Shown: positions 19,926 to 54,440 of the stretch, in pieces | Layout: each line of letters begins with the position of its first letter | How positions within the stretch are numbered: the stretch's first letter is position 1 | Source of the DNA: an uncultured Gammaproteobacteria bacterium | GTDB taxonomy: Bacteria > Pseudomonadota > Gammaproteobacteria > Pseudomonadales > Pseudohongiellaceae | DNA: 54,440 nucleotides | Direction of reading: 5' to 3' | NCBI GenBank assembly: GCA_903837345.1 | Contig: CAILUG010000024.1 | Location: 1-54,440, forward strand | Notes under the pieces: generated by a model | Seen by the model: only the letters and a program-made list of their open reading frames with translations | Databases searched by the model: none | What the model was told of the DNA's origin: nothing | Translations under genes and position numbers: made by a program

Positions 19926-20037
19926 AGCCTTGGGCAGATAGATGCTTCTGAAACACGCCACAAGTACGTCCCTGTAGGCTCGCCTCCGGCCATCCATGGC
20001 CTCCGACGGTTTCAGAAGCATCTACCTGCCCAAGGCT
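19926..20037 (+). repeat. Long-hairpin 3'-end element, copy A (type I)
   Basis: The outer arms 19926-19954 and 20009-20037 are 29 nt long with 28 complementary positions. They begin AGCCTTGGGCAG and end in CTGCCCAAGGCT. The core (19955-20008) reads ACGCCACAAGTACGTCCCTG then TAGG, and encloses the inner hairpin GGCCATCCATGGCC. Read in the direction of dedA, it starts 11 nt after the stop codon. It is nearly identical to the core of the copy at 49066-49177 (53 of 54), which is inverted. Similarity with that copy continues past the arm into CAGTGCGTAATTC. Confidence 0.9.
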
Positions 20038-20123
20038 CTCAATTGCAGTGCGTAATTCCTCCAGCCGAAATGAACACGCGCAATTCTTCAAAGCCACTGG
20101 CGCATACAAACAATTTTCGATGA

Positions 20124-20227
20124 GGGCCGCTCCCTGAAGATGGAGGGGACCTCTGCGGCCAGGGATGGCCGCAGGGAGCTACAGGGATGTATTCATGCGT
20201 GTCCCCGTAATCTTCAGGGAGCGGCCC
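20124..20227 (-). repeat. Long-hairpin 3'-end element, copy B (type II)
   Basis: The 27-nt arms (20124-20150 and 20201-20227) begin GGGCCGCTCCCTGAAGAT and pair at all but three adjacent positions. Those three form the same TAC/TCC internal loop seen in copies C and D. The core (20151-20200) contains GGCCAGGGATGGCC and, on the minus strand, ACATCCCTGTAG. Read in the prfC direction it starts 63 nt after the stop codon. The flank CCCGACTGC on the right is shared with copies C and D. Confidence 0.9.
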
Positions 20228-20289
20228 GACTGCACAGGATTCACAGAAGCGCCAGAGGCTGTGATCAAAAGCACCGCGATGTTTTTATC

Positions 20290-21867
20290 TCAATGTTCGC
20301 GAGTTGAGAAGAACCGCAGCTCAGGCCAGCGTTCTTCGGTGAGGCTGAGATTGACGCGGGTGGGAGCCAGATAGGTGAGATGGCCGCCGCCGTCGATCGC
20401 AATGTTTTCGTATGCTTTCTTTTTGAACTCTTCAATTTTGGCCGGCTCACCCTCAACCCAGCGCGCCGTGTAGATGTTCACCGGTTCATACATGCAATCT
20501 ACGTTGTATTCATCCTTCAAACGGAACGCCACCACTTCAAACTGCAACACCCCGACTGCACCCACGATCAGATCGTTGTTGCGTACCGGCATGAACACCT
20601 GGGTGGAGCCCTCTTCCGACAACTGGGTCAACCCCTTTTGCAAGGATTTGAGCTTGAGCGGATCTTTCAGCCGCATGCGTTTGAACAGTTCCGGCGCGAA
20701 ATGCGGAATGCCGGTGAAATGCAGATCCTCGCCACTGGTGAAAGTATCGCCAATCTGTATCGTGCCATGGTTGTGCAAGCCGACGATGTCGCCCGACACT
20801 GCATATTCAGCCTGTTCACGGTCGCCGGCCAGGAAGGTTACTGCGTCGCTGATGCGGACTTCCTTGCCCAGTCGTACATGCTTCATGCGGACACCTTTTT
20901 CATAGGCTCCTGCACAGATGCGCATGAATGCAATTCGGTCCCGATGTTTGGGATCCATGTTGGCCTGGATCTTGAACACAAAACCGGCAAAGCCGGTTTC
21001 TGTTGGCTCCACAGTGCGGGTACGGGTCGGACGTGGCAATGGGGGTGGCGCCCATTCAACAAAGTTGTCGAGCATTTCTTCCACGCCGAAATTGCCAAGT
21101 GCCGTGCCGAAAAACACAGGCGACTGCTTGCCGTCCAGGTAGGCCTGCAGATCAAAGCGGTGGGAGGCGCCTCGTACCAGTTCGATTTGTGTCCGGAAAT
21201 CGTCGGCATAGGCGCCGAGATAGCGGGTAGCCTCATCACTGTCGAGCCCTGCAATCTTGACGACATCATGCACTTCATCTGACAGGCCGTGTTGATACAT
21301 GTGTATGGTATCGGTGTAAAGGTTGTAGATGCCTTTGAGTTCCTTGCCCATGCCGAGTGGCCAGTAGACGGGAGCGCACTGGATATTCAGGATGCGCTCG
21401 ATTTCATCAAGCAGCTCAACACCGTCGCGGATATCACGGTCCAGCTTGTTGATGAAGGTAAGGATCGGGGTGTCACGCAAACGACACACTTCCATCAGTT
21501 TGATGGTGCGCTCTTCCACACCTTTGGCGCCGTCAATCACCATCAGCACCGAATCCACTGCCGTGAGCACGCGATAGGTATCTTCGGAAAAATCTTCGTG
21601 ACCGGGAGTATCGAGCAGATTGACGATGCGCTCCTTGTACGGGAACTGCATCACGGAAGACGTGATGGAAATACCGCGCTGCTGTTCCATGGCCATCCAG
21701 TCGGATGTCACCATACGATCCGATTTCTTGCCCTTGACCGTGCCGGCTTTCTGGATCACGCGACCATAGAGCAACAGTTTCTCGGTGATCGTGGTTTTGC
21801 CGGCATCCGGGTGCGAAATAATGGCGAAAGTGCGCCGTTTGGCGACTTCAATCTCAAATGGTGTCAT
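20290..21867 (-). CDS. prfC: Peptide chain release factor 3
   Basis: RF3 is a translational GTPase that recycles RF1 and RF2 from the ribosome after peptide release. The 525-residue protein matches the usual length. G1 is HPDAGKTT at 19-26, the switch II region is [14 protein letters not shown], and NKLD is G4. The [11 protein letters not shown] block near residue 65-75 is RF3-specific rather than EF-G-like. The unknown 227-residue protein gene ends 4 bp upstream on the same strand, so the two are likely co-transcribed. Confidence 0.96.
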
Positions 21868-21871
21868 GGAG

Positions 21872-22555
21872 TCAATGCAGCGTGTCAGAGGCGGCGGGAC
21901 TACGGCTGCTGTAGCGGGCAGGCAGTAACTGGTGGGTTTTCACCACCACCAGATCATGAATATGGATATCGGCATAATCCTGTACCGACGCAAGCACCGG
22001 GTCCAGTTGCAATCTTTGCGAGCCCAGCTTGATGCCATCGAGCAACACACACACCACTTCATCTTCCTCAACGCCGACCACGATGCCCCTTTTGTAACCA
22101 TCCACAGTATGAAGTGTGATCGACATGCCCACTTCAGGCTCGGTGATCCCCTGCTGCAAATCGCCCGGATCTGCCACCAGCAGATCATCCACCGTCAACG
22201 CCATGCCAAAGCCGGCCGCCGCCACGATGTTGACGATTTCGATGGTATCCGGGTCGCTGAGATCAACCTTGAAACTGTGGGTGGTATCCAGCGGCAGTTG
22301 CGGGAGCTGCCCGGTATTGCGCACAGCCAGCAGCTTCAGGAACAGATGGATGTCTTCATCGTTCCACTCAAGGGTTTCTTCCTCGCTGAGTTTTTCGTGA
22401 TCGCCACTGAAGCTGATGACATCAGTCTGGATCGTATGTTCGAGGTTCTGGCTGCCGGCCTGGAACGGAATGACCATGGAAACCAGACTGAAGCCCTCTC
22501 CGCTTTCCGCACTCAGTCGCCAGAGGAAGGGTATTTCTTCGCTGAATTCCAACAT
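21872..22555 (-). CDS. Acidic protein of unknown function upstream of prfC
   Basis: I do not recognise this 227-residue protein. It is strongly acidic ([26 protein letters not shown]) and has no signal peptide or membrane segment. The C-terminal third, [20 protein letters not shown] through [12 protein letters not shown], looks like small beta-barrel strands. Its position 4 bp upstream of prfC suggests co-expression. The start is the first ATG (22555), about 90 bp downstream in the transcript from a cluster of DnaA-box-like sites. Confidence 0.6.
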
Positions 22556-23002
22556 GAAAATCTACTGTGCCACGCCTTCAAAAATACTGGGGCCAGTATA
22601 GCATCCCGGGTCTTGCGCCCAAAAAGAAACTGCCGCCATTGGGGTTGTCCACAAAGTTGGGGGATAAAGTTGTGGATAACTTTGGGAAAAGGCATGCCGG
22701 AGCCTGATCCTGCTAAAACCTTAACAAATTGCCTAAAATTTGACCAAATAAATAATCAATAAATTCAACACGTTAAGAGTCTGCATACACAAACTGCACG
22801 AATAATGCGAATTTTCGGCATTATTTCTTTACTACCGGGTTTTGTGCATAAAAGTCCGGGGTTTTCCAACTTCCAATGTTTTTTATGCTGTTTTTACCGG
22901 GGAAATTTCACAATCTTCGCAGTTTATCCGGCAGCTTTCGGACTGCGCGCTTTTAGCCATAAAAAAACGCTGGAAAAGCGGCGTATTTTTTGAGTGTTCC
23001 GG
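22556..23002. other. 447-bp intergenic region with DnaA-box-like sites and an AT-rich tract
   Basis: TTGTCCACA (22645-22653, one mismatch to TTATCCACA), TGTGGATAA (22671-22679, perfect on the minus strand) and TGTGCATAA (22843-22851, fits TTATNCACA on the minus strand) are present. Between them lies an AT-rich tract, about 22715-22770. An 8-bp hairpin AATAATGC / GCATTATT sits at 22801-22825. No replication gene is adjacent, so I do not call an origin. The region also carries the promoter of the 21872 gene and the terminator of the 23003 gene. Confidence 0.5.
22958..22984 (-). terminator. Intrinsic terminator of the pilB-like gene
   Basis: A 6-bp stem ACGCTG / CGGCGT (one G-U pair, 22967-22984) with a GAAAAG loop is followed on the minus strand by seven T residues (22960-22966 as A on plus). 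A T-run at 22986-22991 makes it potentially bidirectional. It lies 18 bp after the stop of the 23003 gene. Confidence 0.65.
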
Positions 23003-25342
23003 TTATTCCCCGACAATGCGCAATAGCTGCGCGTAATCCGAAAGGCCTCTGAATATTTTCATGATGCCGTCTTGTTTCAGCGTCGTCATGCCATCCTTGA
23101 TGGCCTGCTCGCGTATCTCTGACAGTTCTGCCTTGGTATAGATCAGCTGCTGTATTGCGCGCGTGCCTTTCAGTAATTCATGCACACCGGTACGACCCTT
23201 GTAGCCGGTGCCACCACAAATATCGCAACCCTTGGCCCTGCGCATGTCGATGGCGGCGAGATCAATGCCTGAATGCTCGAACTCTGCGCGGCCGTACTGG
23301 TCTATCAAATGATCAATCTCGCGTTGCTCCGGTGTGTAGGGCTCCTTGCACGCCCCGCACAGGGTTCTCATCAAGCGTTGTGCAAGGATGCCGAGCAGTG
23401 CATCCGAAAAATTGACTGGATCAAGGCCAAGATCGAGCAGACGTGTGATGGTCTCTGGCGCCGAGTTGGTGTGCAGCGTAGACAACACAAGGTGACCCGT
23501 AAGTGAGGCCTCCACACCGATGGAGGCAGTTTCCTTGTCGCGCATCTCACCAATCAGGATTACATCAGGGTCAGCACGCAAGAACGCACGCATCGCTGTG
23601 GCAAAAGTAAAACCTATCTTTGGCTGCATCTGTACTTGCTGCAGGCCGGGCTGGGTGATCTCCACCGGATCTTCGGCAGTCCAGATTTTGCGTTCGGGTT
23701 TGTTCAGATGGCCCAACACCGCATGCAACGTCGTGGTTTTACCGGAACCGGTAGGCCCCACCACCAGGATCAGGCCATGCGGATGCGTGGTGATCTCGAC
23801 CAGATTATCGTTGTTGGCTTTGCTGAGATTGAGTTTCTCCATCGGCAGTGCAGAACCGGCAGCCAGGATACGCATCACGGCGCCCTCGCCTTGCACCGTT
23901 GGTACGGTAGCAACACGCAACTCCACTGCCCTGCCACGAATTTTCAGCTTGCACTTGCCGTCCTGCGGCAAACGACGCTCGGCAATATCGAGGCGCGACA
24001 TTACCTTGATACGCGCGACCAGTGCCGAAGTATGTTCCGCCGGCACTTTCAGCAATTCACGACACAGACCGTCAACCCTGACCCGCACTATGCCGGCGCT
24101 GCGGTCCTTGCCGGGTTCAACATGAATATCCGAGGCGCCGAGCTTTTCCGCTTCAATGATGATGCGGTTGACCAGCTGAATGATGGCGGAGGTAGCAGCA
24201 CCCTCCTCCTCTTTCTCCTTGGTTTCATCGACTTCGACATTTTCATCTTCAAGGCTTTTGAACACCTCATCGAAGCCGCCGATCTCATCCTCTTCCGCTC
24301 TGGCGGTATCACCCAGGTATTGCAGGATATGTTCGGGCAACCCCACCCTGAAAGCATAGTTGCGGGCGTTGATGACCCCCTGGATTTCCATGATGCGCTG
24401 GTGGTTGCTGGGGTCGCTGATCAGAATGACCACTTCTTCCTTGCTGCCGGAAATCGGCACCCACATGTTGTTGCGCAGATAACTGGTGCCAAGATTCTCC
24501 ATCAGATCGGTTGGCAGCGTGATCTTCGGATCGTATTTCATGTACGGCACGCGGTAGTAGAACTCCAGCGACTTGCCGATTTCGTCCGCCTCGATCTTGA
24601 AATCATCCATCAGGGCTTTGGTGACAGTGCCCCCGTAGAGCCCCGCGTTATGGGTTACCTTGTCGAGATCGGCGCTGGTAATCCGGCCCTGCTGGACCAG
24701 AAAGTCATAGGGACCCTGCGTACTCTGGAATTCGGAGCGGAACTGGCGGGCCAGCATCTGTGCCACCATGGTGGCGTGCTTGAGATCCTCCTTGGAGAAA
24801 ACCGGGTCGTCCCGCAAATTGATGACCTGGATGACACCGAGCAGAATCTCGTCCTTGATGGGCACCACCATCATGGATTTGAAAAACAATCCTTTCGACT
24901 CGCTGAATTTCTTGTCCCATTGCAAACGCGGATGGATGTTGGTGAGCTCTTCGGCGTTGTAGACGTTGTCTACCAGAATGGCTCTTTGGGCCAGGGCAAC
25001 ATAGCCGGCCAGGGAAGTAGGGGTAAACGGCACCTTGATGACGATGTCATTGCCTTCATCGGAGCCAATGCCACCCTTGTAAGTAGCGACAATTTCCTTG
25101 CCGTTGTCGACACTCTGGTAGATGGTAAACAGCTTGCACCTGAGCAGTGCCAGCATGTCGCCTTCCACATCCTTCATCGCCTTTTTGAGGTTTTTGGCGA
25201 ACTTCAGCTTCTTGTAGATCTGGGAAAGCTGGCGAACAAAGTCCTCGTCCTGGTTTTTTACGGGAGCTTCGGATTTGTTGGCGAGCGCCTCAGCCCTGTT
25301 GGGAGCCTCAGCGGTGTTGTCTAGGGTTTCTGCCAAGTTCAT
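23003..25342 (-). CDS. PilB/GspE-type assembly ATPase with N-terminal GAF domain
   Basis: The protein has 779 residues. After a polar N-terminus, residues about 38-205 form a GAF domain (GLFFKSMMVVPIKDEILLGV). A MshEN/T2SSE-N-like region follows (about 210-345), then an acidic linker (365-382) and the secretion ATPase (about 385-775). Walker A is GPTGSGKT at 529-536. The Asp box (TAEDPVEI), Walker B (VILIGEMRD) and the His box (LVLSTLHTNS) are intact. A four-Cys zinc motif (CGAC then CDIC) sits near the C-terminus. A GAF-fused extension ATPase suggests ligand-gated pilus or secretion assembly. No other pilus gene adjoins it. Tandem 12-bp repeats lie just upstream. Confidence 0.88.
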   Translation of the reverse strand: MNLAETLDNTAEAPNRAEALANKSEAPVKNQDEDFVRQLSQIYKKLKFAKNLKKAMKDVEGDMLALLRCKLFTIYQSVDNGKEIVATYKGGIGSDEGNDIVIKVPFTPTSLAGYVALAQRAILVDNVYNAEELTNIHPRLQWDKKFSESKGLFFKSMMVVPIKDEILLGVIQVINLRDDPVFSKEDLKHATMVAQMLARQFRSEFQSTQGPYDFLVQQGRITSADLDKVTHNAGLYGGTVTKALMDDFKIEADEIGKSLEFYYRVPYMKYDPKITLPTDLMENLGTSYLRNNMWVPISGSKEEVVILISDPSNHQRIMEIQGVINARNYAFRVGLPEHILQYLGDTARAEEDEIGGFDEVFKSLEDENVEVDETKEKEEEGAATSAIIQLVNRIIIEAEKLGASDIHVEPGKDRSAGIVRVRVDGLCRELLKVPAEHTSALVARIKVMSRLDIAERRLPQDGKCKLKIRGRAVELRVATVPTVQGEGAVMRILAAGSALPMEKLNLSKANNDNLVEITTHPHGLILVVGPTGSGKTTTLHAVLGHLNKPERKIWTAEDPVEITQPGLQQVQMQPKIGFTFATAMRAFLRADPDVILIGEMRDKETASIGVEASLTGHLVLSTLHTNSAPETITRLLDLGLDPVNFSDALLGILAQRLMRTLCGACKEPYTPEQREIDHLIDQYGRAEFEHSGIDLAAIDMRRAKGCDICGGTGYKGRTGVHELLKGTRAIQQLIYTKAELSEIREQAIKDGMTTLKQDGIMKIFRGLSDYAQLLRIVGE

Positions 25343-25364
25343 GACCTGTGGACTTTGCTTGCAA

Positions 25365-25412
25365 CTGTCTTTTCAACTGTCGTTTCAAATGTCTTTTCAA
25401 GAGTCTTTTCAA
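25365..25412. repeat. Four tandem 12-bp repeats in the pilB-like leader
   Basis: Four consecutive units, each a variant of (C/A/G)(T/A)GTC(T/G)TTTCAA, fill exactly 48 bp. On the minus strand each reads TTGAAAAGACAN or a close variant. They end 22 bp upstream of the ATG at 25342. They may bind a regulator or alter the 5' leader; TTGAAA also resembles a -35 element repeated every 12 bp. Confidence 0.75.
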
Positions 25413-25510
25413 GCGCATGGTAGAATCCAGCACTGAATTGTCCGCTAGGTTAACACACCTTCGGAGCCACCCAATAATTCCGGCAGTTCACAGGCAGGGC
25501 CCGCTTCCCC

Positions 25511-26311
25511 GTGATCAAATCCCTCACATTGCTGCTGGTCTGGCCAGTTTTTGGCTTTTTTTGCCAGGCCAGGGCTGCCAGTGATCTGCAACCTGCCCTG
25601 GATCAGGCTCAACTGCGCTGGCTGGGGGACAGGATCTATCAAAACGAATGCAATTCCAGGCCACAGTGCCTGACTGCCTGGAATGCAGGAGAGGAGTTCC
25701 CTTCACTGGGAATCGGCCATTTCATCTGGTACCGCAGCGGCCAAACCGCACCGTTTGTGGAAACCTTTCCGGATTTGTTGAAGTTTCTGCAGCAGTCCGG
25801 TGTGGCAGTTCCTGCATGGTTGCAACAGGACCAGCACCAGCCCTGGCCTGATCGTGACACTTTTCTTGCCGGAGTGAATGACCCGCATCTGCGGGAATTA
25901 CGGACCTTGCTGGAACAAACCCGCGACCAGCAGACGGCATTTATCGTCCGCCGCTTCGAAAACCTGGTGCATGACGCCGGCACGCCGTTTGCCACACGTG
26001 CCGACATCCACAGCAAATTGCAGGCGGTGGCCACTGCCAAAATTCCTTACGGCCTGTATGCGCTGATAGACTATGTACATTTCAAGGGCGATGGTACTGC
26101 TGTCTCCGAACGGTATCAGAGCCAGGGTTGGGGCTTGTTGCAAGTACTGGATCACATGCCGCTGCAAAGCTCCGACCCTTTGCAGGACTTTGTGACCAGT
26201 GCCGGTTTCATTTTGACGCAGCGGGTTGCCAATGCACCCGCTGAACGGCGGGAACAACGCTGGCTTGCCGGCTGGCTGCACCGGCTGCAAACCTATCTGC
26301 CCAAGCCCTGA
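25511..26311 (+). CDS. Conserved exported protein of unknown function
   Basis: The 266-residue protein starts with GTG and has a signal peptide (SLTLLLVWPVFGFFCQARA). I recognise the conserved block IYQNECNSRPQCLTAWNAGE, then SLGIGHFIWYRSG and FPDLLKFL, from unnamed proteobacterial proteins. The two cysteines of NECNSRPQC may form a disulfide. A second conserved stretch, IDYVHFKGDGT...GWGLLQVL, looks like part of an active site or binding groove, reminiscent of lysozyme-like folds, but I cannot support that. It precedes hisC by 51 bp on the same strand. Confidence 0.65.
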   Translation: MIKSLTLLLVWPVFGFFCQARAASDLQPALDQAQLRWLGDRIYQNECNSRPQCLTAWNAGEEFPSLGIGHFIWYRSGQTAPFVETFPDLLKFLQQSGVAVPAWLQQDQHQPWPDRDTFLAGVNDPHLRELRTLLEQTRDQQTAFIVRRFENLVHDAGTPFATRADIHSKLQAVATAKIPYGLYALIDYVHFKGDGTAVSERYQSQGWGLLQVLDHMPLQSSDPLQDFVTSAGFILTQRVANAPAERREQRWLAGWLHRLQTYLPKP

Positions 26312-26362
26312 TTTCCGCGAAAAATCCGGAAGGTGCCAATTGAATTACTGCAGGAGTATTGC

Positions 26363-27439: not shown

Positions 27440-27440
27440 C

Positions 27441-28180: not shown

Positions 28181-28189
28181 AAGAAAAAG

Positions 28190-34732: not shown

Positions 34733-34739
34733 AAACCTT

Positions 34740-44113: not shown

Positions 44114-44218
44114 GGGCTTCTCCCTGAAGATTACGGGGACCGCCGCAAGTACATCCCTGTAGGCTTAGTCTTCGGCATCCATGCCTCAGATGTCCCCTCC
44201 ATCTTCAGGGAGAAGCCC
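44114..44218 (+). repeat. Long-hairpin 3'-end element, copy C (type II)
   Basis: The 27-nt arms 44114-44140 and 44192-44218 begin GGGCTTCTCCCTGAAGAT and pair except for the 3x3 internal loop TAC/TCC. The core reads CGCCGCAAGTACATCCCTG then TAGGC, with inner hairpin GGCATCCATGCC. The flank GCAGTCGGGC precedes it, as in copies B and D. In the direction of the TonB receptor gene it starts 190 nt after the stop, beyond the terminator. Confidence 0.9.
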
Positions 44219-44393
44219 TCTTCCGATTGCATCTGCAAGTTCAAAAGGAAATTAAACCGAACTCCGCAAAGTCTGCATTAAGGGGGGCGATTACGCCAAT
44301 GTTGGGCCGCTAAAACAAGATAGCGTGGCTTTTGCAAATTCAGAAAGGTACGACGACATGTATTGGGATCAGAGTCACTTGTTATGTGAGAAC

Positions 44394-44708
44394 TTACTGG
44401 CCATTTTCTATTGCCCTCCTGACTATTAACGAAACCGACTCCGGAGTTATGCCGCGCACCAAGCAATACTTTGATTGTAGCCACAGAGAAAGCTGCTTTT
44501 GTCCTTTACTTGAATTGCAGCCACAACAACAGAGCGCAATATTCTCCCTGGTAATGATCGACGCATTGTTGATGATGTGCTCCCAACTAGCGGCCGATCT
44601 CCGCGAGACTTTGGTCGAGGTAAACCTTACACCACAATAAATGCATGCCTTATCCCTTGCTCTTACTTCCAGTTCAAGCCAGTTTGGAATTTTCCAATTA
44701 TTTGCCAC
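44394..44708 (-). CDS. Stand-alone HNH endonuclease
   Basis: The 104-residue protein starts with GTG at 44708. A CIYC zinc knuckle (C22, C25) pairs with CCGC (C61, C64). The HNH core is SWEHIINNASIITRENIALC, with H44 as the general base and N56. N65 in CNSSKG follows. It would nick or cleave DNA with a metal ion. Base composition is distinctly richer in A and T than neighbours, and it lies between two inverted hairpin elements and two terminators, suggesting horizontal acquisition. No intron, intein, phage or restriction gene adjoins it. Confidence 0.82.
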   Translation of the reverse strand: MANNWKIPNWLELEVRARDKACIYCGVRFTSTKVSRRSAASWEHIINNASIITRENIALCCCGCNSSKGQKQLSLWLQSKYCLVRGITPESVSLIVRRAIENGQ

Positions 44709-44876
44709 ATTCCAACTCGATTTGGTTACGCATTATTTTGTTAGTTAGGAGGTCTCTTTATCTCGAACAGCCAAAAGAACCTATTATTTCGGACTTAGTC
44801 TCCAGTATTTCATTGACCTCCCCCATACTCCATAGCCAGGAAAAAACGAAACTGGATAGACGTATCTGCTTGAAGA

Positions 44877-44980
44877 GGGCTTCCCCATGAAGATGGAGGG
44901 GACCTCTGCGGCCATGGATGGCCGCAGGGAGCTACAGGGATGTATTCATGCGTGTCCCCGTAGTCTTCATGGGGAAGCCC
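44877..44980 (-). repeat. Long-hairpin 3'-end element, copy D (type II)
   Basis: The arms 44877-44903 and 44954-44980 begin GGGCTTCCCCATGAAGA. They pair fully apart from the conserved internal loop and one flanking C-A mismatch. The core (44904-44953) differs from copy B by a single base and contains GGCCATGGATGGCC. Compared with copy B, four arm positions differ and each is matched by a complementary change on the other arm. In the direction of the DUF1993 gene it starts 96 nt after the stop, beyond the terminator. Confidence 0.9.
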
Positions 44981-45024: not shown

Positions 45025-45050
45025 ATAAAAAAGGCTGCAAGAAGCAGCCT
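45025..45050 (-). terminator. Intrinsic terminator of the DUF1993 gene
   Basis: The 7-bp stem AGGCTGC / GCAGCCT (45032-45050) with loop AAGAA is followed on the minus strand by T6, and on the plus strand by T6 as well. It lies 26 bp after the DUF1993 stop codon and mirrors the TonB receptor terminator. Confidence 0.9.
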
Positions 45051-45075
45051 TTTTTATATTTGGATAGAGCGCCGA

Positions 45076-48226: not shown

Positions 48227-48239
48227 TCTCCGATAAATG

Positions 48240-48314
48240 CAGCGCCCGCGGCGCTCGAAGCAACAGCACACGAACAGCGCCCTTCTTTGCCAGGCAGAGC
48301 AATAGCCCATTCAT
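48240..48314 (-). repeat. 75-nt codon-frame repeat r3
   Basis: Read on the minus strand it starts ATGAATGGGC and ends GCTTCGAGCGCCGCGGGCGCTG. It follows r2 directly; its ATG overlaps the TGA of the r2 frame as ATGA. The open frame continues past the repeat for 17 more codons, antisense to the end of the TerC gene. The conserved residues are the same as in r1 and r2. Confidence 0.6.
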
Positions 48315-48322
48315 GAAGAAAG

Positions 48323-48397
48323 CAGCGCCTGCGGCGTTCGAAGCCCCCACACCAGAACCGCGCCCATCTTTACCAAGTGGAGCCACGGCCAGTTCAT
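48323..48397 (-). repeat. 75-nt codon-frame repeat r2
   Basis: Read on the minus strand it starts ATGAACTGGCC at the end of the T8 run of the 48398-48425 terminator. It ends GCTTCGAACGCCGCAGGCGCTG, identical to r1 over the last 22 bases. The frame stops at 48311-48313 after 28 codons. It shares the pattern G-A-V and L-R-x-P-x-A-L with r3. Confidence 0.6.
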
Positions 48398-48425
48398 AAA
48401 AAAAAGGGCGCCTTGGGGGCGCCCT
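48398..48425 (-). terminator. Intrinsic terminator of the 59-residue peptide gene
   Basis: The 8-bp stem AGGGCGCC / GGCGCCCT (48405-48425) with a 5-nt loop is followed on the minus strand by T8. It lies 87 bp after the stop codon of the small secreted protein gene. A second small hairpin, GTTGTC / GACAAC (48434-48449), precedes it. Confidence 0.85.
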
Positions 48426-48511
48426 GAAAAATGGTTGTCTGGCGACAACCGCTTGATACGAGACCAACTACAAAACAACAACTGCACTACAACTACACAC
48501 AACAACTACTT

Positions 48512-48691
48512 TCAAACTTCAAATTCTTCCAGCTCATTGAAATCCACTGCAGCGGCTGACACGGGCTCGCTGCCAGCTTTGCCTTCAAGCGTCATGGCTT
48601 CACTGCTCTCATTAATAGCAGGCTCTCTCTCCTGGGCCATGACCGCTGTTGCCAACGACATCACAGCAGACAACAAAATCAGGTATTGCAT
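48512..48691 (-). CDS. 59-residue secreted peptide, unknown function
   Basis: This small gene reads MQYLILLSAVMSLATAVMAQ and then a short acidic mature part. Cleavage after VMA or AQ would leave roughly 40 residues with about ten Asp/Glu and a hydrophobic-acidic end, FNELEEFEV. CAAGGAG stands 7 nt before the ATG, an excellent ribosome site, and an intrinsic terminator follows 87 bp downstream. Start signal, signal peptide and terminator together argue strongly that it is real, though it is below the size many annotators accept. I recognise no homologue. It lies alone between TerC and the glr operon. Confidence 0.75.
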   Translation of the reverse strand: MQYLILLSAVMSLATAVMAQEREPAINESSEAMTLEGKAGSEPVSAAAVDFNELEEFEV

Positions 48692-48942
48692 CAGTGACTC
48701 CTTGCAAAACTACTCGTACTGCGGGAGCTTCAGTCTGATCAGCGTCAAGCAATTGACTGCTTGTGCCGAACTTCCTCGTGCTTGCTCATGTATAAGCACG
48801 AGCTGTGCCATCTTTTTTAGTCAAATAAATCAATGGGTTATAAACCAGAATAACAGTGGTGTGTCGGGCCAGCACGCCAGTTTACGAGTGCTTTGGCCAA
48901 CTCCTTGTTTTGCAAGGATTCAAGTGTCTGGGCTGCCAGACA

Positions 48943-48981
48943 GGGTTCGTCGACATGCCATAAACCCATCCATGGGACTCG
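48943..48981 (+). repeat. Truncated long-hairpin element, copy G
   Basis: The sequence GGTTCGTCGACATGCC through AACCCATCCATGGG matches the 5' half of the copy at 54365-54440 at roughly five in six positions. The inner hairpin and the 3' arm are missing, so it cannot form the long stem. It is in plus sense, 717 nt downstream of the TerC gene. Confidence 0.6.
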
Positions 48982-48992
48982 ACGTCACTCAG

Positions 48993-49017
48993 CGCAGTCG
49001 GGCTGCTCTCTTTCAGG
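48993..49017 (+). repeat. Possible 5' remnant of a type II hairpin element, copy H
   Basis: GCAGTCGGGC followed by TGCTCTCTTTCAGG resembles the conserved 5' flank and the first arm of copies B, C and D. No matching second arm is present. It lies directly after copy G. Confidence 0.4.
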
Positions 49018-49065
49018 TTCAGAGCGTGTTCATTGCAACCGGACGAATTACGCACTGAATCTGAG

Positions 49066-49177
49066 AGCCTTGGGCAGCTAAGTGCTTCTGAAACTGTCGG
49101 AGGCCATGGATGGCCGGAGGCGAGCCTACAGGGACGTACTTGTGGCGTGTTTCAGAAGTACTTAGCTGCCCAAGGCT
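49066..49177 (-). repeat. Long-hairpin 3'-end element, copy E (type I)
   Basis: The 29-nt arms (49066-49094 and 49149-49177) begin AGCCTTGGGCAGCTAAGT and pair at 28 positions, with a G-T at the remaining one. The core contains GGCCATGGATGGCC and the minus-strand word ACGTCCCTGTAGG. Relative to copy A, two adjacent arm pairs are changed on both sides. In the direction of glrR it starts 50 nt after the stop codon. The flank towards 49041 (GAATTACGCACTGAA) is shared with copy A. Confidence 0.9.
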
Positions 49178-49226
49178 GTGCACCGAACCGGTGTAATGTC
49201 CAAATGCATATCAGCCTGACGCCAAT

Positions 49227-50606
49227 CTAATTGTCGGTCAGTTTGCGGAACTGCTCGGGGTCAAGACCATGACGATTGAGCAGATTGTAAAACTCGGTGC
49301 GGTTGCGTTCGGCCAGCCGGGCCGATAGTGCAATATTGCCTTCGGTAAGATTCAGCAAGCGGATCAGATAATCGCGCTCGAATTGCTCGCGTGCCTCATT
49401 GAGACTGAGCAGTCGCTCGGATTTGTGGCGTAACGCCCGCGCCACCAGCGTGCGACTGATAACCGGTGTCGGCGTCAGCACCACACACTGTTCAACCGTG
49501 TTATAGAGCTGGCGCACATTGCCAGGCCACGGCGCCGACACCAGCAATTCAGCCGCTTCCGGAGAAAAATGACAGGCTGGCTTATGGTTCTTGACCGCCA
49601 GCTTTTGCGCAAAATGATGAGCCATCAGCAGGATGTCTTCCCTGCGCTCGGACAGCGGCGGCAATTCCAGCGTGATCACGTTGAGGCGGTAAAACAGATC
49701 TTCCCGGAAACTGCCCTGCTGCACCCGCTCACCCAGATTGTGATGGGTGGCCGCGATGATGCGCACATTGATAGCCAGATTGTCGGTGCCTCCCACCGGC
49801 CTTACTTCCTGCCGCTCCAGTACCCGCAACAGTTTGGATTGTGCCGACAGCGGCATGTCGCCGACTTCATCCAGAAACACCGTGCCTTTGTTGGCGGCCA
49901 TGAACAGACCCGGATGCGCGCGCGTGGCACCGGTAAACGCTCCGGCCGCATGGCCGAACAATTCGGATTCGATCAGTGACTCCGGCAAAGCTGCGCAATT
50001 GAAGGCAACAAACGGTTCAAGCGCGCGCGGGCTGGCCTTGTGAATCGCTCTTGCCAGCAATTCCTTGCCGGTACCGGTCTGGCTCTGGATCAGGATGCTG
50101 ACATCAGTGACAGCTGCTGCATGCGCCTGCAACAGCAGTGACTCCATCACTGCGCTCTGGCTGATGATTTCTTCGCGCCAGCCGTCGTCATTGTGGGCCG
50201 GGTCTTCCGCCTGCTGATACCCGCTCTGCCGGAAAGCCTTGTCAATGTTGTCGAGCAGAACATTGGCATCAAACGGCTTGACCAGATAACTGAAGATGCC
50301 ACGGCGGGTAGCGTCAACCGCATCCGGTATGGTGCCATGTGCTGTCAGTACAATCACCGGCAGATGCGGCTGACGTTTCTGGATCGCCTCAAACAATGCC
50401 ATGCCATCCATGCCCGGCATGCGCTGGTCAGTCACCACCACATGCGGACGGAACACCGGCAGTTGCAACAGGGCTTTTTCGCCGCTGCTGACCGAGGCCA
50501 CATCATAACCCCTGGATTTGAGCCGCATGCTGATCAGCAGCAAGAGGTCGGCGTCGTCATCGACCAGCAGTATGCGTCGTCGCGAAGGTTGCAGTCTGGC
50601 TTTCAT
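49227..50606 (-). CDS. glrR: Sigma-54-dependent response regulator GlrR
   Basis: GlrR (QseF) activates sigma-54 promoters after phosphorylation by GlrK. In E. coli it drives glmY small-RNA expression. The 459-residue protein has REC with D60 (VVVTDQRMPG) and K110, then the AAA+ domain. Walker A is QTGTGKE (about 176-182) and the sigma-54 loop GAFTGA is at 222-227. LDEVGDMP is Walker B. The Fis-type helix-turn-helix is at the C-terminus (NIALSARLAERNRTEFYNLL). The residues before the P-loop are SQ rather than the usual GE. Its start overlaps the qseG stop (ATGA). Confidence 0.92.
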   Translation of the reverse strand: MKARLQPSRRRILLVDDDADLLLLISMRLKSRGYDVASVSSGEKALLQLPVFRPHVVVTDQRMPGMDGMALFEAIQKRQPHLPVIVLTAHGTIPDAVDATRRGIFSYLVKPFDANVLLDNIDKAFRQSGYQQAEDPAHNDDGWREEIISQSAVMESLLLQAHAAAVTDVSILIQSQTGTGKELLARAIHKASPRALEPFVAFNCAALPESLIESELFGHAAGAFTGATRAHPGLFMAANKGTVFLDEVGDMPLSAQSKLLRVLERQEVRPVGGTDNLAINVRIIAATHHNLGERVQQGSFREDLFYRLNVITLELPPLSERREDILLMAHHFAQKLAVKNHKPACHFSPEAAELLVSAPWPGNVRQLYNTVEQCVVLTPTPVISRTLVARALRHKSERLLSLNEAREQFERDYLIRLLNLTEGNIALSARLAERNRTEFYNLLNRHGLDPEQFRKLTDN

Positions 50607-51214
50607 TTTCTGGATCCGTTGCGATCCTGCTCCACCAATTGCTGTTCTATGACGGTGAGCGCATCAATCTGTTTTTGCATCAGGCGATTTTGCTGTTCCA
50701 GCAGGTTTTTCTGGGATTCGAGTGAAGTTACAACTCCTGACTGCAATGCAAAACGGTTTTGCAGGTCGTCGTGGTTTTTACGCAGTGCTTCCTGTGCTGC
50801 ATGCAGACTTTCCTTCTCCGCCAGGACTTGCTGCAGCTGGCCACGGCGCTGCAATTCTTCCAGCCAATGACCGGCAAAAATCCGGTAATCCTCGGCCAGG
50901 GCCGGATCGGGATTACGCGCCACTGCTGTCAGCAAACGCACGGCCTCTGCCACATCGGCGGCAGGAGCCTCAACCGGCATGCTGAGCAGCAGCGCCTTTT
51001 TGACATCCCGCAAAGACTGGCTGGATGTGCCCATGCCAGCCAGATTGTGCAATTCGTTGTTGCGCGCTTCGGCACTGGCTGAATGCAGCCACTGGTAGTA
51101 GGCCAGCGCCGATTGTTCCGGCACCAGCGTGCTTGATGACAACACCATCGGGCTGCTGCAAGCCGATAACAACAACAGCGACAGCATCAGCAATGACAAC
51201 CGGCAACCAGCCAT
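50603..51214 (-). CDS. qseG: QseG/YfhG-like lipoprotein
   Basis: The protein is 203 residues from ATG 51214, giving a compact lipoprotein signal MAGCRLSLLMLSLLLLSACS with the lipobox Cys at 19. ATG 51268 would add 18 residues. The mature protein has helical segments and a C-terminal coiled coil (LESQKNLLEQQNRLMQKQID). In enterobacteria QseG lies between glrK and glrR in the outer membrane and interacts with the kinase. Sequence similarity is low, so the name rests mainly on operon position and architecture. Confidence 0.78.
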   Translation of the reverse strand: MAGCRLSLLMLSLLLLSACSSPMVLSSSTLVPEQSALAYYQWLHSASAEARNNELHNLAGMGTSSQSLRDVKKALLLSMPVEAPAADVAEAVRLLTAVARNPDPALAEDYRIFAGHWLEELQRRGQLQQVLAEKESLHAAQEALRKNHDDLQNRFALQSGVVTSLESQKNLLEQQNRLMQKQIDALTVIEQQLVEQDRNGSRK

Positions 51215-51271
51215 GATGCTGCGGAATCCGGGAAGTCCGACTGCCACGATGTAAGCATTTCCAATCATGAA

Positions 51272-52702
51272 TCAGCTTGCCTGTACCGGAAATACCAGTT
51301 TGAACAATGCCCCGGTTTCACAGGGCGCCACTTCTATGATGCCTCGATTGGCATTGACGTATTCCTGCACGATGGCAAGACCAAGACCCGTACTCTTGAT
51401 CAGGCTGCGGGCAGGTGTATTGCCCTGATAAAAGGCCTGGAATACCAGTTCACGCTCTTCCGGCGCAATGCCCGGCCCCTGATCTTCCACTTCCAGCACC
51501 ATACGCTCATCCTGGCGTTGCCATCGCAACCAGATGGTACCCCGTTCCGGCGAATATTTGATGGCGTTGGTGAGGAGATTATCGACAATCACCCGCAACT
51601 GTTCAGCATCGCCGCGCACCACCAGTTTTTCCAGTCGGGTTTCGACGTGCAAACCTGCTGTCTGCAACGCAAACTCATGATTGGCCACCACTGACTCAAT
51701 GATCTGATCCATCCTTACATCCTGCGGTGCCGCGTTGAGAATGGACTGGATCTCGCGGTGATACCGCAGCAGCTCGTCAATCAGCCCCTGCAGACGCTGG
51801 CAATTGTTGTTGTTGATGGCCAGCAATTTGAGCTGGTCTGGATTGACCGGTCCCGCCACGCCATCACGCAACAAGGCCACACTTTCCTGGATTGATGCCA
51901 GCGGCGTTTTCAGTTCATGCGAAACATGCCGGAAAAACGCCGTGCTTTGCTGCTCGAGTTTATGCAGACGGCTGCGCAGCCAATCCAGGCTGTTGCCCAG
52001 ATGGCGCAAGTCGGCCGGTCCCTGCACAGCAATACTCGCGTCATAGCTGCCACTGCCGAGCTTGTTGATGGCTTTTTCCAGCTGCCCGAGCGGCCTGGTA
52101 ATCAAGGTGGTAAACAACGCGGCGAGGCCGAGTGCTGTCAGTGTGAGCACTATCGCCTGCCCCTGCAGAAAACCCTGGGTACTGGCGATTTCCTGCCGGA
52201 TTGCATTCAGCTGCAGAGCTGTCCAGTTGCCAAGCAGGTCCGACAGTTGCAACGCCTGCTCACGCAGGTTTTGATAATTGCCCTGGATCATTTCTGCCGA
52301 AGAGCCCGTCACCAGCTTCTGGTAATACCCTGCTTCTTCCCTGCGCATCGCGCTTATTTCCGCATTGATACCATCATCAAGACCCAGCGAGGACAAGCGG
52401 CCGGCCGCACCGGCAAAGCTGCTCTGCCGTTCGCGATAGACCTTGAGCAGGTTCTTGTCTGCCGTGATCTGGTATTGGCGGGCATTGCGTTCCATTGCAG
52501 TGGCCTGTTCTATGATCACGCGCACGGCTTCGGTGCCGGCAGCCGACAGGTTCAGCACCCGCTGACTGCGCTCACCCAGTGCATTGATCTGGCGGGCGGT
52601 GATAAACAAGGCCACGATCAGGATGCCGGCCACCATCAGGAAGCCGGTAACAGTCAATTGCAGAATAGAGCGTGGTTTGAATGACAGTTTGTTGAGTAAC
52701 AT
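51272..52702 (-). CDS. glrK: Sensor histidine kinase GlrK
   Basis: The 476-residue kinase phosphorylates GlrR. TM1 is about 13-36, a periplasmic helical sensor follows (about 37-180), and TM2 is about 182-202. HAMP (about 203-255) leads to the HisKA motif FRHVSHELKTPLAS with H262. The catalytic domain has the N box DNLLTNAIKYS, DQGPGIA, and STGLGLAIV. The sensor region is rich in charged helices, as in QseE/GlrK. Operon order glrK-qseG-glrR matches E. coli. It is divergent from the N-acetyltransferase gene with 35 bp between. Confidence 0.92.
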   Translation of the reverse strand: MLLNKLSFKPRSILQLTVTGFLMVAGILIVALFITARQINALGERSQRVLNLSAAGTEAVRVIIEQATAMERNARQYQITADKNLLKVYRERQSSFAGAAGRLSSLGLDDGINAEISAMRREEAGYYQKLVTGSSAEMIQGNYQNLREQALQLSDLLGNWTALQLNAIRQEIASTQGFLQGQAIVLTLTALGLAALFTTLITRPLGQLEKAINKLGSGSYDASIAVQGPADLRHLGNSLDWLRSRLHKLEQQSTAFFRHVSHELKTPLASIQESVALLRDGVAGPVNPDQLKLLAINNNNCQRLQGLIDELLRYHREIQSILNAAPQDVRMDQIIESVVANHEFALQTAGLHVETRLEKLVVRGDAEQLRVIVDNLLTNAIKYSPERGTIWLRWQRQDERMVLEVEDQGPGIAPEERELVFQAFYQGNTPARSLIKSTGLGLAIVQEYVNANRGIIEVAPCETGALFKLVFPVQAS

Positions 52703-52737
52703 GGGGCCGACTCTACCATAGGACGGACAGCCCCTTC

Positions 52738-53562
52738 ATGAGCTACTCCCCGTTAACAACTGCTGAACTCGACCGTTATTTCGCCCGCATTGCGTATCAG
52801 GGATCGCCCCGGGCTGACATTGGCACCCTGGCAGCCCTGCACTATCTGCATCCGCTTGCCATTCCCTTTGAAAACCTGGACAGCTGGAGTGGTCACACAC
52901 CACTCCTGGATGAAGCTGCCGTTTTCACCAAACTGGTGGACGCGGGACGCGGCGGTTATTGCTTCGAACACAACCAGTTGTTCCTGCGTGCGCTGTTGGC
53001 GCTTGGCTTCAATGTACAGACACTGGCTGCGCGGGTGATCCAGCCCGGGCAACCTTTGCCACGCACACACAAGGTATTGCTGATCCAAACCGGGCAAGGT
53101 CCCGTACTGGCAGATGTCGGCTTTGGCGGCATGACGATGAGTGCACCCTTGCAGCTGTATCTGCGGGGGCAGCAAACCACACCCCATGAACCCTGGCAGA
53201 TAGAAGCGGATGACAATGAATACGTGACCAGTGCACAAGTGCTTGGTGAGTGGTCGCCGAAATTCAGGTTCAGCCTGCAACCGCAAACAACCAGGGATTA
53301 TGAAATGGCGAATTGGTACGTTGCCAATCATCCGTCCTCCCGCTTTCGCAATGACCTGATCGCGGCGCGCGTGTCAGCAGCGGGACGCCATGCATTGCTC
53401 AATACCCGGCTGATGTTCCATCAGCACAACCAGGGGTCCGAACAGACCGAGCTCGGCAGTCCGGCGGAAGTGGCAGCAGCACTGAACCAGGTGTTCGGCA
53501 TCAACACCACTGCCATCATTGGTCTGGAGCAGAAACTGGCCAAGCTTTTCACTGATTCCTGA
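52738..53562 (+). CDS. nat: Arylamine N-acetyltransferase
   Basis: NAT transfers acetyl from acetyl-CoA to arylamines and hydrazines. The 274-residue enzyme has the catalytic triad C75 (GRGGYCFEHN), H111 (RTHKVL) and D126 (LADVGFGG). The family start DRYFARI and IPFENLD are also clear. Length matches bacterial NATs. It follows the glrK divergent promoter and precedes yhhQ by 43 bp. It could detoxify aromatic amines, consistent with the aromatic theme, but this is inference. Confidence 0.93.
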   Translation: MSYSPLTTAELDRYFARIAYQGSPRADIGTLAALHYLHPLAIPFENLDSWSGHTPLLDEAAVFTKLVDAGRGGYCFEHNQLFLRALLALGFNVQTLAARVIQPGQPLPRTHKVLLIQTGQGPVLADVGFGGMTMSAPLQLYLRGQQTTPHEPWQIEADDNEYVTSAQVLGEWSPKFRFSLQPQTTRDYEMANWYVANHPSSRFRNDLIAARVSAAGRHALLNTRLMFHQHNQGSEQTELGSPAEVAAALNQVFGINTTAIIGLEQKLAKLFTDS

Positions 53563-53605
53563 GCAATACTGTGTCCATACCGTCCAACATTTGAGTAGAT
53601 GAACC

Positions 53606-54322
53606 ATGCGACAGTATCGTTATTACGATTTCCTGATGGCTGCCTTTGTCACGGTATTGCTGTGCTCCAATCTGATCGGGCCTGCCAAGGTGGGCTACAT
53701 CAGCTTTCCGTTTCATCTGCCCCTGCTTGGCGACAATCTGAGCTTCGGCGCCGGCAATCTGTTTTTCCCGCTCGGTTACATCTTTGGTGATGTGCTGACG
53801 GAAGTCTATGGCTATGCGCGGGCGCGCAAGGTGATCTGGGCCGGATTCGGGGCCATGATATTTGCCTCAGTGATGGCCTGGGTCATCGTCTATCTGCCAC
53901 CTTCACCTGCCGAGCCATTCAACCAGCAGGTGCAACCAGCCGTGGAAATATTGTTCGGCAACACCTGGCGCATAGTACTGGCTTCCATCGTGGCATTCTG
54001 GGCCGGCGATTTCGTCAACTCGTTCGTGATGGCCAAAATGAAAGTGCTGACACAGGGGCGCAAGCTGTGGACCCGCACCATCGGTTCCACCATTGTTGGC
54101 CAGGCGGTGGACAGCGTGCTGTTTTACCCGGTGGCCTTTGCCGGCATCTGGAGTTTTGACACCTTGCTGGCGGTGATTTTGTTCAACTGGGGTTTCAAGA
54201 TCACCGTGGAAATCCTGATGACGCCGGCAACCTACTGGATCGTCAACAGGCTCAAGCAAGCCGAAAGTGAAGATTATTTCGACACTGACACCGACTTCAC
54301 TCCATTCTCTCTCAAGGTTTGA
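53606..54322 (+). CDS. yhhQ: Queuosine precursor transporter YhhQ
   Basis: The 238-residue protein belongs to the VUT/COG1738 family that imports 7-cyano- or 7-aminomethyl-7-deazaguanine for queuosine synthesis. The first helix begins YYDFLMAAFVTVLLCSNLIGP. The motifs GNLFFPLGYIFGDVLTEVYGY and AFWAGDFVNSFVMAKMK, and the later RTIGSTIVGQAVDS, are diagnostic. About six helices are visible, with an acidic C-tail. Long-hairpin copy F starts 43 nt after the stop. Confidence 0.93.
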   Translation: MRQYRYYDFLMAAFVTVLLCSNLIGPAKVGYISFPFHLPLLGDNLSFGAGNLFFPLGYIFGDVLTEVYGYARARKVIWAGFGAMIFASVMAWVIVYLPPSPAEPFNQQVQPAVEILFGNTWRIVLASIVAFWAGDFVNSFVMAKMKVLTQGRKLWTRTIGSTIVGQAVDSVLFYPVAFAGIWSFDTLLAVILFNWGFKITVEILMTPATYWIVNRLKQAESEDYFDTDTDFTPFSLKV

Positions 54323-54364
54323 ACCTTTTATTTTAGTTCAGCGCACAGCCGCTGGCGGGGACAC

Positions 54365-54440
54365 GGTTCGTCGACACGCCGTGAACCCATCCCTGGGGGC
54401 TCGTCTGCAGCCGTCCCTGGCTGCAGACGGTCGCCGAACC
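54365..54440 (+). repeat. Long-hairpin 3'-end element, copy F (type III)
   Basis: The arms GGTTCGTCGAC (54365-54375) and GTCGCCGAACC (54430-54440) pair at 10 of 11 positions. They enclose ACGCCGTGAACCCATCCCTGG and a perfect 11-bp inner hairpin CGTCTGCAGCC / GGCTGCAGACG (54402-54429). Word order matches copies A-E, but arms and inner stem are unrelated in sequence. The right flank is cut by the window end. It is in the same sense as yhhQ. Confidence 0.8.

What the first reader, a model, noticed from the sequence alone, without database searches (positions are those of the whole stretch)
19926..54440. A family of long-hairpin intergenic elements with a shared core
Six copies (19926-20037, 20124-20227, 44114-44218, 44877-44980, 49066-49177, 54365-54440) share one layout: a 5' outer arm, a single-stranded core around ACGCC-N4-AGTACRTCCCTGTAG, an inner hairpin often containing GGCCATCCATGGCC, and a 3' outer arm. 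The layout looks like a defined RNA or DNA module rather than random palindromes. GTAG just before the inner hairpin recalls REP sequences, but no RAYT transposase is in the window. I cannot say whether the family has been named in related genomes.
Basis: seen in the sequence. Interest (0 to 1): 0.85.

Follow-up and report, generated by a model that had tools for sequence, protein, structure and literature searches.

The report
Paired hairpin repeats resembling TwoAYGGAY RNA
The window carries copies of a dispersed, mobile-looking DNA repeat whose one strand folds like a known but unexplained bacterial RNA, TwoAYGGAY, with two small loops of the kind that the global regulator CsrA is known to grip.

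Summary
A covariance model built from 60 units of other bacteria, without window sequence, finds all six copies (E 6e-16 to 7e-12). At least 69 units lie in this genome. The 'single-stranded core' holds a second hairpin and GTAG is paired, so the REP resemblance fails. Units usually stand as inverted pairs: 21 of 21 close pairs here, 37 of 47 elsewhere. Three relatives lack the 19926-20227 pair between the same genes. Outer-stem mismatches are G.U on one strand 236 times, on the other 50 times, with the same lean in both members of pairs. That strand carries GGA in both small loops and weakly matches Rfam TwoAYGGAY (28.1 bits, cut-off 43); one related unit passes the cut-off. So this is a high-copy gammaproteobacterial branch of the TwoAYGGAY superfamily, for which CsrA binding was predicted earlier (PMC4333381). 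Best mechanism: a mobile-like repeat whose transcripts display a two-site CsrA/RsmA clamp. CsrA binding, transcription and mobiliser are not shown. No Y1 transposase was found in this genome; none of 49 Y1 loci elsewhere has units on both sides.

The parts
   Evidence: R1 19942-20021 (-) 68.7 bits, E 1.1e-15; RF01731 19919-20044 (-) 28.1 bits, E 0.019; arms
19957..19979 (-). c1 hairpin 1: GCC/GGC and TAC/GTA stems with loop 19968-19973 (AGGGAC on the - strand)
   Evidence: sequence; stem covariation in other units
19988..20001 (-). c1 hairpin 2: GGCC stem, loop 19992-19997 (ATGGAT on the - strand)
   Evidence: sequence; fold
20124..20227 (+). unit c2 (B-type arms), partner of c1; the RNA strands of the pair point outward
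   Evidence: R1 20138-20213 (+) 58.1 bits; arms
20038..20123 (.). 86-nt spacer of the c1-c2 pair, without a recognised gene
   Evidence: sequence; similar spacers in other pairs of this genome
44114..44218 (-). unit c3 (B-type arms)
   Evidence: R1 44127-44205 (-) 54.2 bits; arms
44877..44980 (+). unit c4 (B-type arms), same relative orientation to c3 as c2 to c1 but 658 nt away
   Evidence: R1 44891-44966 (+) 57.1 bits
48950..48984 (-). degenerate partner core of c5 (hairpin 2 and outer arms not recognisable)
   Evidence: sequence; R1 48961-48976 (-) 12.8 bits, E 0.46, not significant
49066..49177 (+). unit c5 (A-type arms)
   Evidence: R1 49082-49161 (+) 62.9 bits; arms
54363..54440 (-). unit c6, cut by the end of the contig
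   Evidence: R1 54363-54440 (-) 69.9 bits, cut at its 5' end

Best explanation
The copies belong to a dispersed, MITE-like repeat found across the Gammaproteobacteria. Units are usually set as inverted pairs with the RNA strands pointing outward. Transcription read through the pair from either side therefore yields one correctly oriented unit. I infer that this RNA offers two GGA loops to one dimer of CsrA/RsmA and acts as a local clamp or, summed over many copies, as a decoy for that regulator. The repeat spreads by an unidentified mobiliser that is probably not a Y1/RAYT transposase. Shown: the structure, the favoured strand, the loops, copy number, inverted pairing, and absence at the same site in relatives (one site). 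Inferred: that the folded strand acts as RNA, that CsrA binds it, and any regulatory effect.
For: Covariation: 93.3% of cells paired against 64.1% shuffled, 474 cells with changes on both sides against 131. Strand: in 156 units outside the window, forward A:C (reverse G.U) 236 against forward G:T 50; units leaning that way 97 against 12. The bias holds in left (59:10) and right (49:15) members of 33 inverted pairs, which a mutational strand bias would not give. Loops: GGA in or beside the loop of hairpin 2 in 146 of 149 units, ANGGA in 123, although hairpin 2 was not part of the search pattern. Perfect ANGGAN hairpins inside units: 104 on the RNA strand, 1 on the other; five permuted loops gave 0 to 3. 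Family: RF01731 hits c1 on the predicted strand. In G040 one unit scores 74.5 bits with R1 and 43.5 bits with RF01731 (cut-off 43), same strand; in Marinobacter daqiaonensis an above-cut-off RF01731 copy (45.3 bits) is the inverted partner of an R1 unit (65.3 bits) (L318). CsrA motif in TwoAYGGAY: predicted in PMC4333381 (passages). CsrA gene: in 54 of the 57 genomes searched, G000 among them. Mobility-like: 385 nt of G000 stand against 32 nt in G007 between the same two genes; G009 and G003 also lack the pair, and R1 finds nothing at E 1 in their loci. Copies: at least 69 in G000, all 21 close pairs inverted the same way.
Against: The Rfam match of the window is weak: 28.1 bits for c1 in a 351-nt search, below the cut-off of 43, and none for c2-c5 at E 10 (c6 was searched only at the gathering threshold). 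In a whole-genome search RF01731 found only one place in G000, 23.2 bits, E 0.535, and it found nothing in eight named loci that carry units. Ysr224, the Yersinia version known as an sRNA, matches the complementary strand in L127, not the strand I favour. The RNA strand is not preferentially co-directional with neighbouring genes: 17 sense, 27 antisense among 44 single units between tandem genes. So a plain 3'UTR role is not supported. CsrA is near universal in these genomes, so its presence discriminates little. One covariation measure is only slightly above its control: 24 pairs with changes on both sides against 21.3 in shuffles, reached by 5 of 500. Of the pairs elsewhere 10 of 47 do not point outward. 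No target-site duplication and no mobiliser were found. No transcript data were seen.
Confidence: 0.5

Rival explanations
1. The units are end hairpins of a non-autonomous DNA transposon. A single-strand-specific enzyme binds the folded strand of each unit (or one arm of an extruded cruciform). The GGA loops are its recognition letters and have nothing to do with CsrA.
For: Dispersed copies with absence at the same site; inverted pairs with different arms at the two ends, as left and right ends of one element; no preference for gene direction. Long hairpins with almost free stem sequence but a fixed core fit recognition of a shape.
Against: No Y1_Tnp gene found in G000 nor in G010 (80 pattern hits, 99% complete), nor in two further unit-bearing genomes, Rheinheimera sp. 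D18 and Marinobacter daqiaonensis. Of 49 Y1 loci none has units on both sides; of 196 loci fetched up to then, nearly all for the units, only L148 encodes a Y1-like protein at E 1e-4. G.U favours the RNA strand in both members of inverted pairs, so no single strand of the whole pair is the favoured one. No transposase gene was recognised, by eye, among the open frames between more distant units. With one typical unit as query, 1 of 72,556 plasmid records and 0 of 50,697 phage records match.
Confidence: 0.27
2. The units are transcription-end or mRNA-protecting hairpins between convergent genes; the GGA loops are incidental.
For: The three sites in the window with genes on both sides lie between convergent frames (VTT-domain gene/RF3, TonB receptor/DUF1993, a frame without a Pfam match/sigma-54 regulator). 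Across loci convergent 34, tandem 59, divergent 20, against a background of 81, 204, 88 (30 clusters at locus edges and 12 inside called frames were left out).
Against: The excess between convergent genes is modest. No T-run follows the arms of the complete window copies. Loop letters and the inner hairpin would need no conservation, yet GGA is nearly invariant.
Confidence: 0.1
3. An ordinary REP/BIME family with a lost RAYT.
For: High copy number, intergenic, inverted doublets made of unlike partners, as reported for REP dimers (PMC3733652, passages).
Against: Units are 105-112 nt, not 20-40; the GTAG is paired; no Y1 gene found in G000.
Confidence: 0.04

Closest known systems
TwoAYGGAY RNA (Rfam RF01731; Weinberg et al. 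2010, PMC2864571, table row seen)
   Same: Long variable outer stem, two hairpins with AYGGAY-type loops, same strand wherever both models hit; units of related genomes reach or approach its cut-off; its copies in Marinobacter daqiaonensis also come in inverted pairs, four pointing outward and one inward among those listed, and one such copy is paired with an R1 unit.
   Different: Window copies score below the cut-off. Hairpin 1 here has a 3+3 bp stem with a 5-nt bulge (YUYRY) that the Rfam alignment fits only with gaps. The four above-cut-off copies of M. daqiaonensis score 17.7-19.5 bits with R1 or are not hit (one of four), so they are a sister branch.
Ysr224, Yersinia sRNA (RF02770; PMC9029176, passages)
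   Same: The unit of Yersinia similis is Ysr224 (126.5 bits, cut-off 70) and is also found by R1 (66.9 bits).
   Different: The Rfam model lies on the complementary strand; it matches other genera only weakly (20-38 bits).
CsrB/RsmZ-type CsrA-sequestering sRNAs
   Same: GGA in hairpin loops (recalled; also PMC4333381 passages).
   Different: Two loops per unit instead of many; many dispersed copies instead of one gene (recalled for CsrB/RsmZ); binding not tested.
TIRs of TIRtrons (Di Nocera et al. 2013, PMC3733652, abstract and passages)
   Same: Long inverted repeats, sometimes self-complementary, close together in S. maltophilia; motif GGGGWSAS resembles GGGGACAC of B-type arms.
   Different: The repeats beside two Y1 genes of S. 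maltophilia D457 are other sequences (GGGGTCAGATCCCTTT..., AAAAGGGGACGGAGGGG...); no Y1 gene of 49 has units on both sides.
REP/BIME/REPIN with RAYT
   Same: Dispersed, intergenic, inverted doublets.
   Different: Size, structure, paired GTAG, no Y1 enzyme found in this genome.

Membership tests
TwoAYGGAY RNA (RF01731) | score at or above the curated cut-off of 43 bits | tested here: not met
   c1 28.1 bits; best in G000 by genome search 23.2 bits. For the wider family it is met once: G040 unit 43.5 bits that is also an R1 hit of 74.5 bits.
TwoAYGGAY RNA (RF01731) | outer stem enclosing two hairpins with GGA-bearing loops on one strand | tested here: met
   strand supported
TwoAYGGAY RNA (RF01731) | being an RNA (transcribed) | not testable with these tools
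   no expression data; the original authors mark it 'probably' RNA (PMC2864571, passage)
CsrA/RsmA-binding RNA | ANGGAN in hairpin loops, in pairs | tested here: met
   hairpin 2: 146 of 149 with GGA, 123 with ANGGA; hairpin 1 carries it by the search pattern; 104 against 1 by strand
CsrA/RsmA-binding RNA | binding by CsrA in vitro or in vivo | not testable with these tools
   -
CsrA/RsmA-binding RNA | CsrA encoded in the same genome | tested here: met
   G000:C34:70256-70411, E 4.9e-25; 54 of 57 genomes. The three without a hit are G005, G008 and G030; G005 and G008 are 88% and 81% complete and have pattern hits, G030 is 99% complete and has none
REP (GTAG- or CGTC-tagged) | unpaired tag beside a 20-40 nt hairpin | tested here: not met
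   GTA pairs with TAC; the two variable pairs of that stem are Watson-Crick in 142 of 143 cores each (the fetch pattern fixed only purine or pyrimidine at one of them)
REP (GTAG- or CGTC-tagged) | Y1/RAYT transposase in the genome | tested here: not met
   0 matches to PF01797 in G000 and in G010; a gene in an assembly gap cannot be excluded
TIR of a TIRtron | flanks a Y1 gene on both sides | tested here: not met
   0 of 49 Y1 loci (up to 1.5 kb each side, seven cut short by contig ends). L200 has one degenerate unit (R1 36.6 bits) about 465 nt away on one side, with only 365 nt of contig on the other; L148, outside the 49, has a Y1 gene about 320 nt from a unit with other sequence at its ends
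MITE-like mobile element | dispersed copies and absence at the same site in relatives | tested here: met
   (one site examined)
MITE-like mobile element | target-site duplication and a matching transposase | tested here: inconclusive
   no duplication recognised by eye; no mobiliser found

The most novel reading that the evidence does not exclude
A selfish repeat spread over the chromosomes of a whole bacterial class carries a ready-made two-site CsrA/RsmA clamp. Tens of scattered copies together form a distributed sponge, or read-through sensor, for that global regulator. Its inverted pairing guarantees one working RNA whichever neighbouring gene reads through.
Probability: 0.3. Interest if true: 0.85.

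Novelty: new variant of a known kind. Interest (0 to 1): 0.62.

Why it matters
TwoAYGGAY has been an orphan RNA motif since 2010, with CsrA binding only predicted in what I could find. The data here give it a genomic life: a high-copy branch, inverted pairs with unlike arms, presence and absence at a site, a supported strand, and a model that matches 82 of 369 sampled genomes of the class. That makes a long-open question testable: does a repeat family feed into Csr/Rsm regulation? If so, titration of a global RNA-binding protein by mobile repeats would be a new regulatory principle. If not, the family is still an unexplained class-wide mobile-looking hairpin element without a known enzyme.

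Tried and rejected
A first pattern with wrong spacing found nothing in the genome and was replaced. GTAG/REP reading: rejected. TIRtron reading: taken seriously after PMC3733652, tested on 49 Y1 loci (30 of the many matches, all 19), rejected. Pattern scans of these loci gave only chance-like matches; R1 gave one degenerate unit on one side (L200) and two insignificant matches (L270, E 0.23 and 0.47; its Y1 gene is bordered by other, GTAG-bearing palindromes). An autonomous version with a gene between two units: looked for among unit pairs 250-4000 nt apart by reading their open frames; only ordinary-looking genes by eye, not searched against family libraries. Plasmid, phage or E. coli copies: 1 of 72,556 plasmid records, 0 of 50,697 phage records, 0 of 20,395 E. 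coli records with one 62-nt typical unit at E 0.01; divergent units could be missed. Orientation relative to genes as a test of a 3'UTR role: negative (a crude longest-frame gene caller was used). The second empty-site search was run but its junctions were not analysed. Letters of the core searched in papers: no hit. A transcriptome paper on Alcanivorax (abstract and passages) reports two other CsrA-related sRNAs; in what I saw I recognised nothing like these repeats. In one search, five of the 207 model hits were left out (two of L140, one each of L092, L131, L074: truncated or overlapping on the other strand); one of the 202 kept (L298) is from the window's own genome. In one search, 149 of 156 units could be read for hairpin 2.

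Literature on naming and function: six paper searches. Whether the repeat nature of TwoAYGGAY is already in print I cannot say beyond these.
Full report
WHAT IS THERE. The window is a complete contig of a 3.26-Mb draft genome. The six copies are real: five complete units of 104-112 nt and one cut by the contig end. The outer arms of the five complete units head the list of inverted repeats of the window, and these units fold far better than shuffles, z -7.7 to -11.1. A covariance model, R1, built only from units of other genomes (alignment A2, 60 of 91 candidate units), finds all six with E 5.6e-16 to 7.1e-12. In the genome a core pattern gave 72 places with up to three mismatches against 10 for the reversed control; some of the weakest are not units. 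Distinct R1 hits known to me are 69, a lower bound because only part of the genome was listed or read with R1.

ANATOMY. RNAalifold finds 28 pairs, 24 with changes on both sides. Counted directly on a structure of 28 pairs, 93.3% of cells pair against 64.1% in shuffles; cells with changes on both sides are 474 against 131; pairs with such a change are 24 against 21.3, a weak margin. Sliding the partner by one to three columns drops pairing to 33.7-42.5%. Two bulge positions separated by only two nucleotides also covary without exception: U-A 53, C-G 7 of 60; in an overlapping set of 143 cores T-A 119, C-G 24 (the fetch pattern fixed pyrimidine and purine there, not the pairing). The letters of the outer arms are nearly free, yet they stay complementary.

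PAIRS. Units usually stand as inverted pairs. In the window's genome 21 of 21 neighbours closer than 400 bases, among the 69 hits, have the RNA strands pointing outward. In 202 hits of other loci it is 37 of 47, and with a pattern-based finder on largely the same loci 33 of 44 closer than 250. The two units of a pair usually carry unlike arms. The reversed-sequence control of that finder gave 0 units in 956 kb against 160 real ones (the loci had been fetched by a core pattern).

MOBILITY. Between a VTT-domain gene and the RF3 gene, G000 carries the c1-c2 pair. G007, whose flanks align at 83% and 87%, has 32 bases where G000 has 385, and G009 and G003 also lack the pair; R1 finds nothing at E 1 in these loci. 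In G001, G002, G005, G008 and G010 the gene on the left is not the same one, so they say nothing. G004 has one contig that starts inside a unit (R1 33.4 bits) and another with only stubs of both outer arms, so presence varies. I recognised no target-site duplication. No Y1 transposase is found in this genome or in G010, which has 80 pattern hits; nor in two further unit-bearing genomes. Of 49 Y1 loci fetched (30, all 19; seven cut short by contig ends) none has units on both sides; one, L200, has a degenerate unit about 465 nt away on one side. Of 196 loci fetched up to then, nearly all of them for the units, only L148 encodes a Y1-like protein at E 1e-4. The repeats beside two S. maltophilia Y1 genes are different sequences. 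The mobiliser is unknown.

WHICH STRAND ACTS. Read on the other strand these are G.U 236 and A.C 50. 97 units lean that way, 12 the other. The bias has the same sign in the left (59:10) and right (49:15) members of 33 inverted pairs, so a replication- or transcription-linked mutation bias would have to follow the unit and not the chromosome strand. Selection on a folded single strand is the simplest reading. On that strand hairpin 2, which was not part of the search pattern, carries GGA in or beside its loop in 146 of 149 units and ANGGA in 123. Perfect ANGGAN hairpins inside units number 104 on this strand and 1 on the other; five permuted loop motifs gave 0 to 3. Further ANGGAN hairpins cluster within 250 bases of units: 13, as many as in all the remaining sequence of those loci; most are probably partner units that the finder missed (my inference).

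RELATION TO KNOWN RNAs. At gathering scores Rfam finds nothing but two tRNAs in the window. At relaxed thresholds the best match at c1-c2 is TwoAYGGAY (RF01731), full length, on the predicted strand of c1, 28.1 bits, E 0.019, cut-off 43. For c2-c5 there is none. Across 18 genomes RF01731 finds 12 with a match at E up to 10 and three above the cut-off. In G040 a unit that R1 scores at 74.5 bits reaches 43.5 bits with RF01731; in G007 and S. maltophilia D457 four units scored 80-94 bits by R1 reach 31.7-40.5 bits. Wherever both models hit the same place in these 14 stretches the strands agree. In Marinobacter daqiaonensis the four above-cut-off copies score 17.7-19.5 bits with R1, or are not hit (one of four). 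Listed RF01731 copies there form four outward pairs and one inward pair. In L318 an above-cut-off copy (45.3 bits) is the inverted partner of an R1 unit (65.3 bits). So R1 and RF01731 describe two branches of one superfamily. Against this: RF01731 found nothing in eight named loci with units and one weak place in G000. The Yersinia similis unit is Rfam's Ysr224, but on the complementary strand; that conflicts with my choice of strand unless both strands are transcribed. TwoAYGGAY was marked 'probably' RNA, in human gut, gamma-Proteobacteria and Clostridiales (PMC2864571, passage), and CsrA binding was predicted for it from its loops (PMC4333381, passages).

DISTRIBUTION. R1 matches 82 of 369 sampled genomes of the class (hits scored are capped at 12 per genome) and 34 of 398 of the phylum sample; of these 34 one is G000, 16 are listed as same order and 17 as same class (how many of the 398 lie outside the class is not shown). 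One typical unit as query finds 1 of 72,556 plasmid records, 0 of 50,697 phage records and 0 of 20,395 E. coli records.

HOW IT PROBABLY WORKS. The inverted pair gives one correctly oriented unit to a transcript from either side. That transcript would show two GGA loops on a rigid support, as a CsrA/RsmA dimer likes them (established knowledge of the Csr system, and PMC4333381 passages). CsrA is encoded in 54 of 57 genomes searched, this one among them, which is expected and weak evidence. A plain 3'UTR role is not supported: of 44 single units between tandem genes the RNA strand is sense 17 times and antisense 27 times, and the gene caller was crude. The rival, recognition of the folded strand by an unknown recombinase, explains the dispersal better and the loop letters less well. 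Both could be true: a mobile repeat that carries a CsrA site.

VERDICT. A real, dispersed, structured repeat; a high-copy branch of the TwoAYGGAY superfamily rather than something without precedent. What is new here, as far as my six paper searches go, is its life as a paired mobile-like element, the strand evidence, and the broader model.

Noticed in passing
L325 (G606:C1:94431-95645): Six R1 units in tandem on one strand, spaced 226-229 bases, an array unlike the usual inverted pairs.
   Followed up: partly
alignment A2 columns 64 and 67: Watson-Crick covariation without exception across a gap of only two nucleotides inside the bulge (YUYR); perhaps a tight turn or a base triple.
   Followed up: no
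L318 (G064:C6:213200-213900): A mixed pair: one member is an above-cut-off TwoAYGGAY copy, the other an R1-type unit.
   Followed up: no
L127 7801-7828: In Yersinia similis a separate 11-bp hairpin with an AGGGAT loop stands 36 bases from the unit, same RNA strand.
   Followed up: no
L129 1072-1257: Three ANGGAN hairpins in a row beside a unit, on the strand opposite to its RNA strand.
   Followed up: no
window 44219-44876: A 658-nt stretch between c3 and c4 where other close pairs have about 30-200 nt; no clear gene, origin unexplained.
   Followed up: no
L148 5580-6790: A 325-aa Y1 transposase gene about 320 nt from a unit in Shewanella xiamenensis, bordered by GGGGACAG-type sequence and not by units.
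   Followed up: partly
L200 366-1259 (G050:C59): An IS200-like Y1 gene with a degenerate unit (36.6 bits) about 465 nt away; the other side is cut by the contig end after 365 nt.
   Followed up: partly
G000 contig ends (starts of C3, C4, C5, C18, C22, C35, C36, C46, C56, C61; ends of C6, C12, C21, C24, C26, C28, C53, C59, C62): Many contigs of the draft genome begin or end inside or beside units, so the repeats probably broke the assembly (C24).
   Followed up: no
window 45025-45057: A perfect 14-nt-arm hairpin with A- and T-runs, a likely bidirectional intrinsic terminator beside c4.
   Followed up: no
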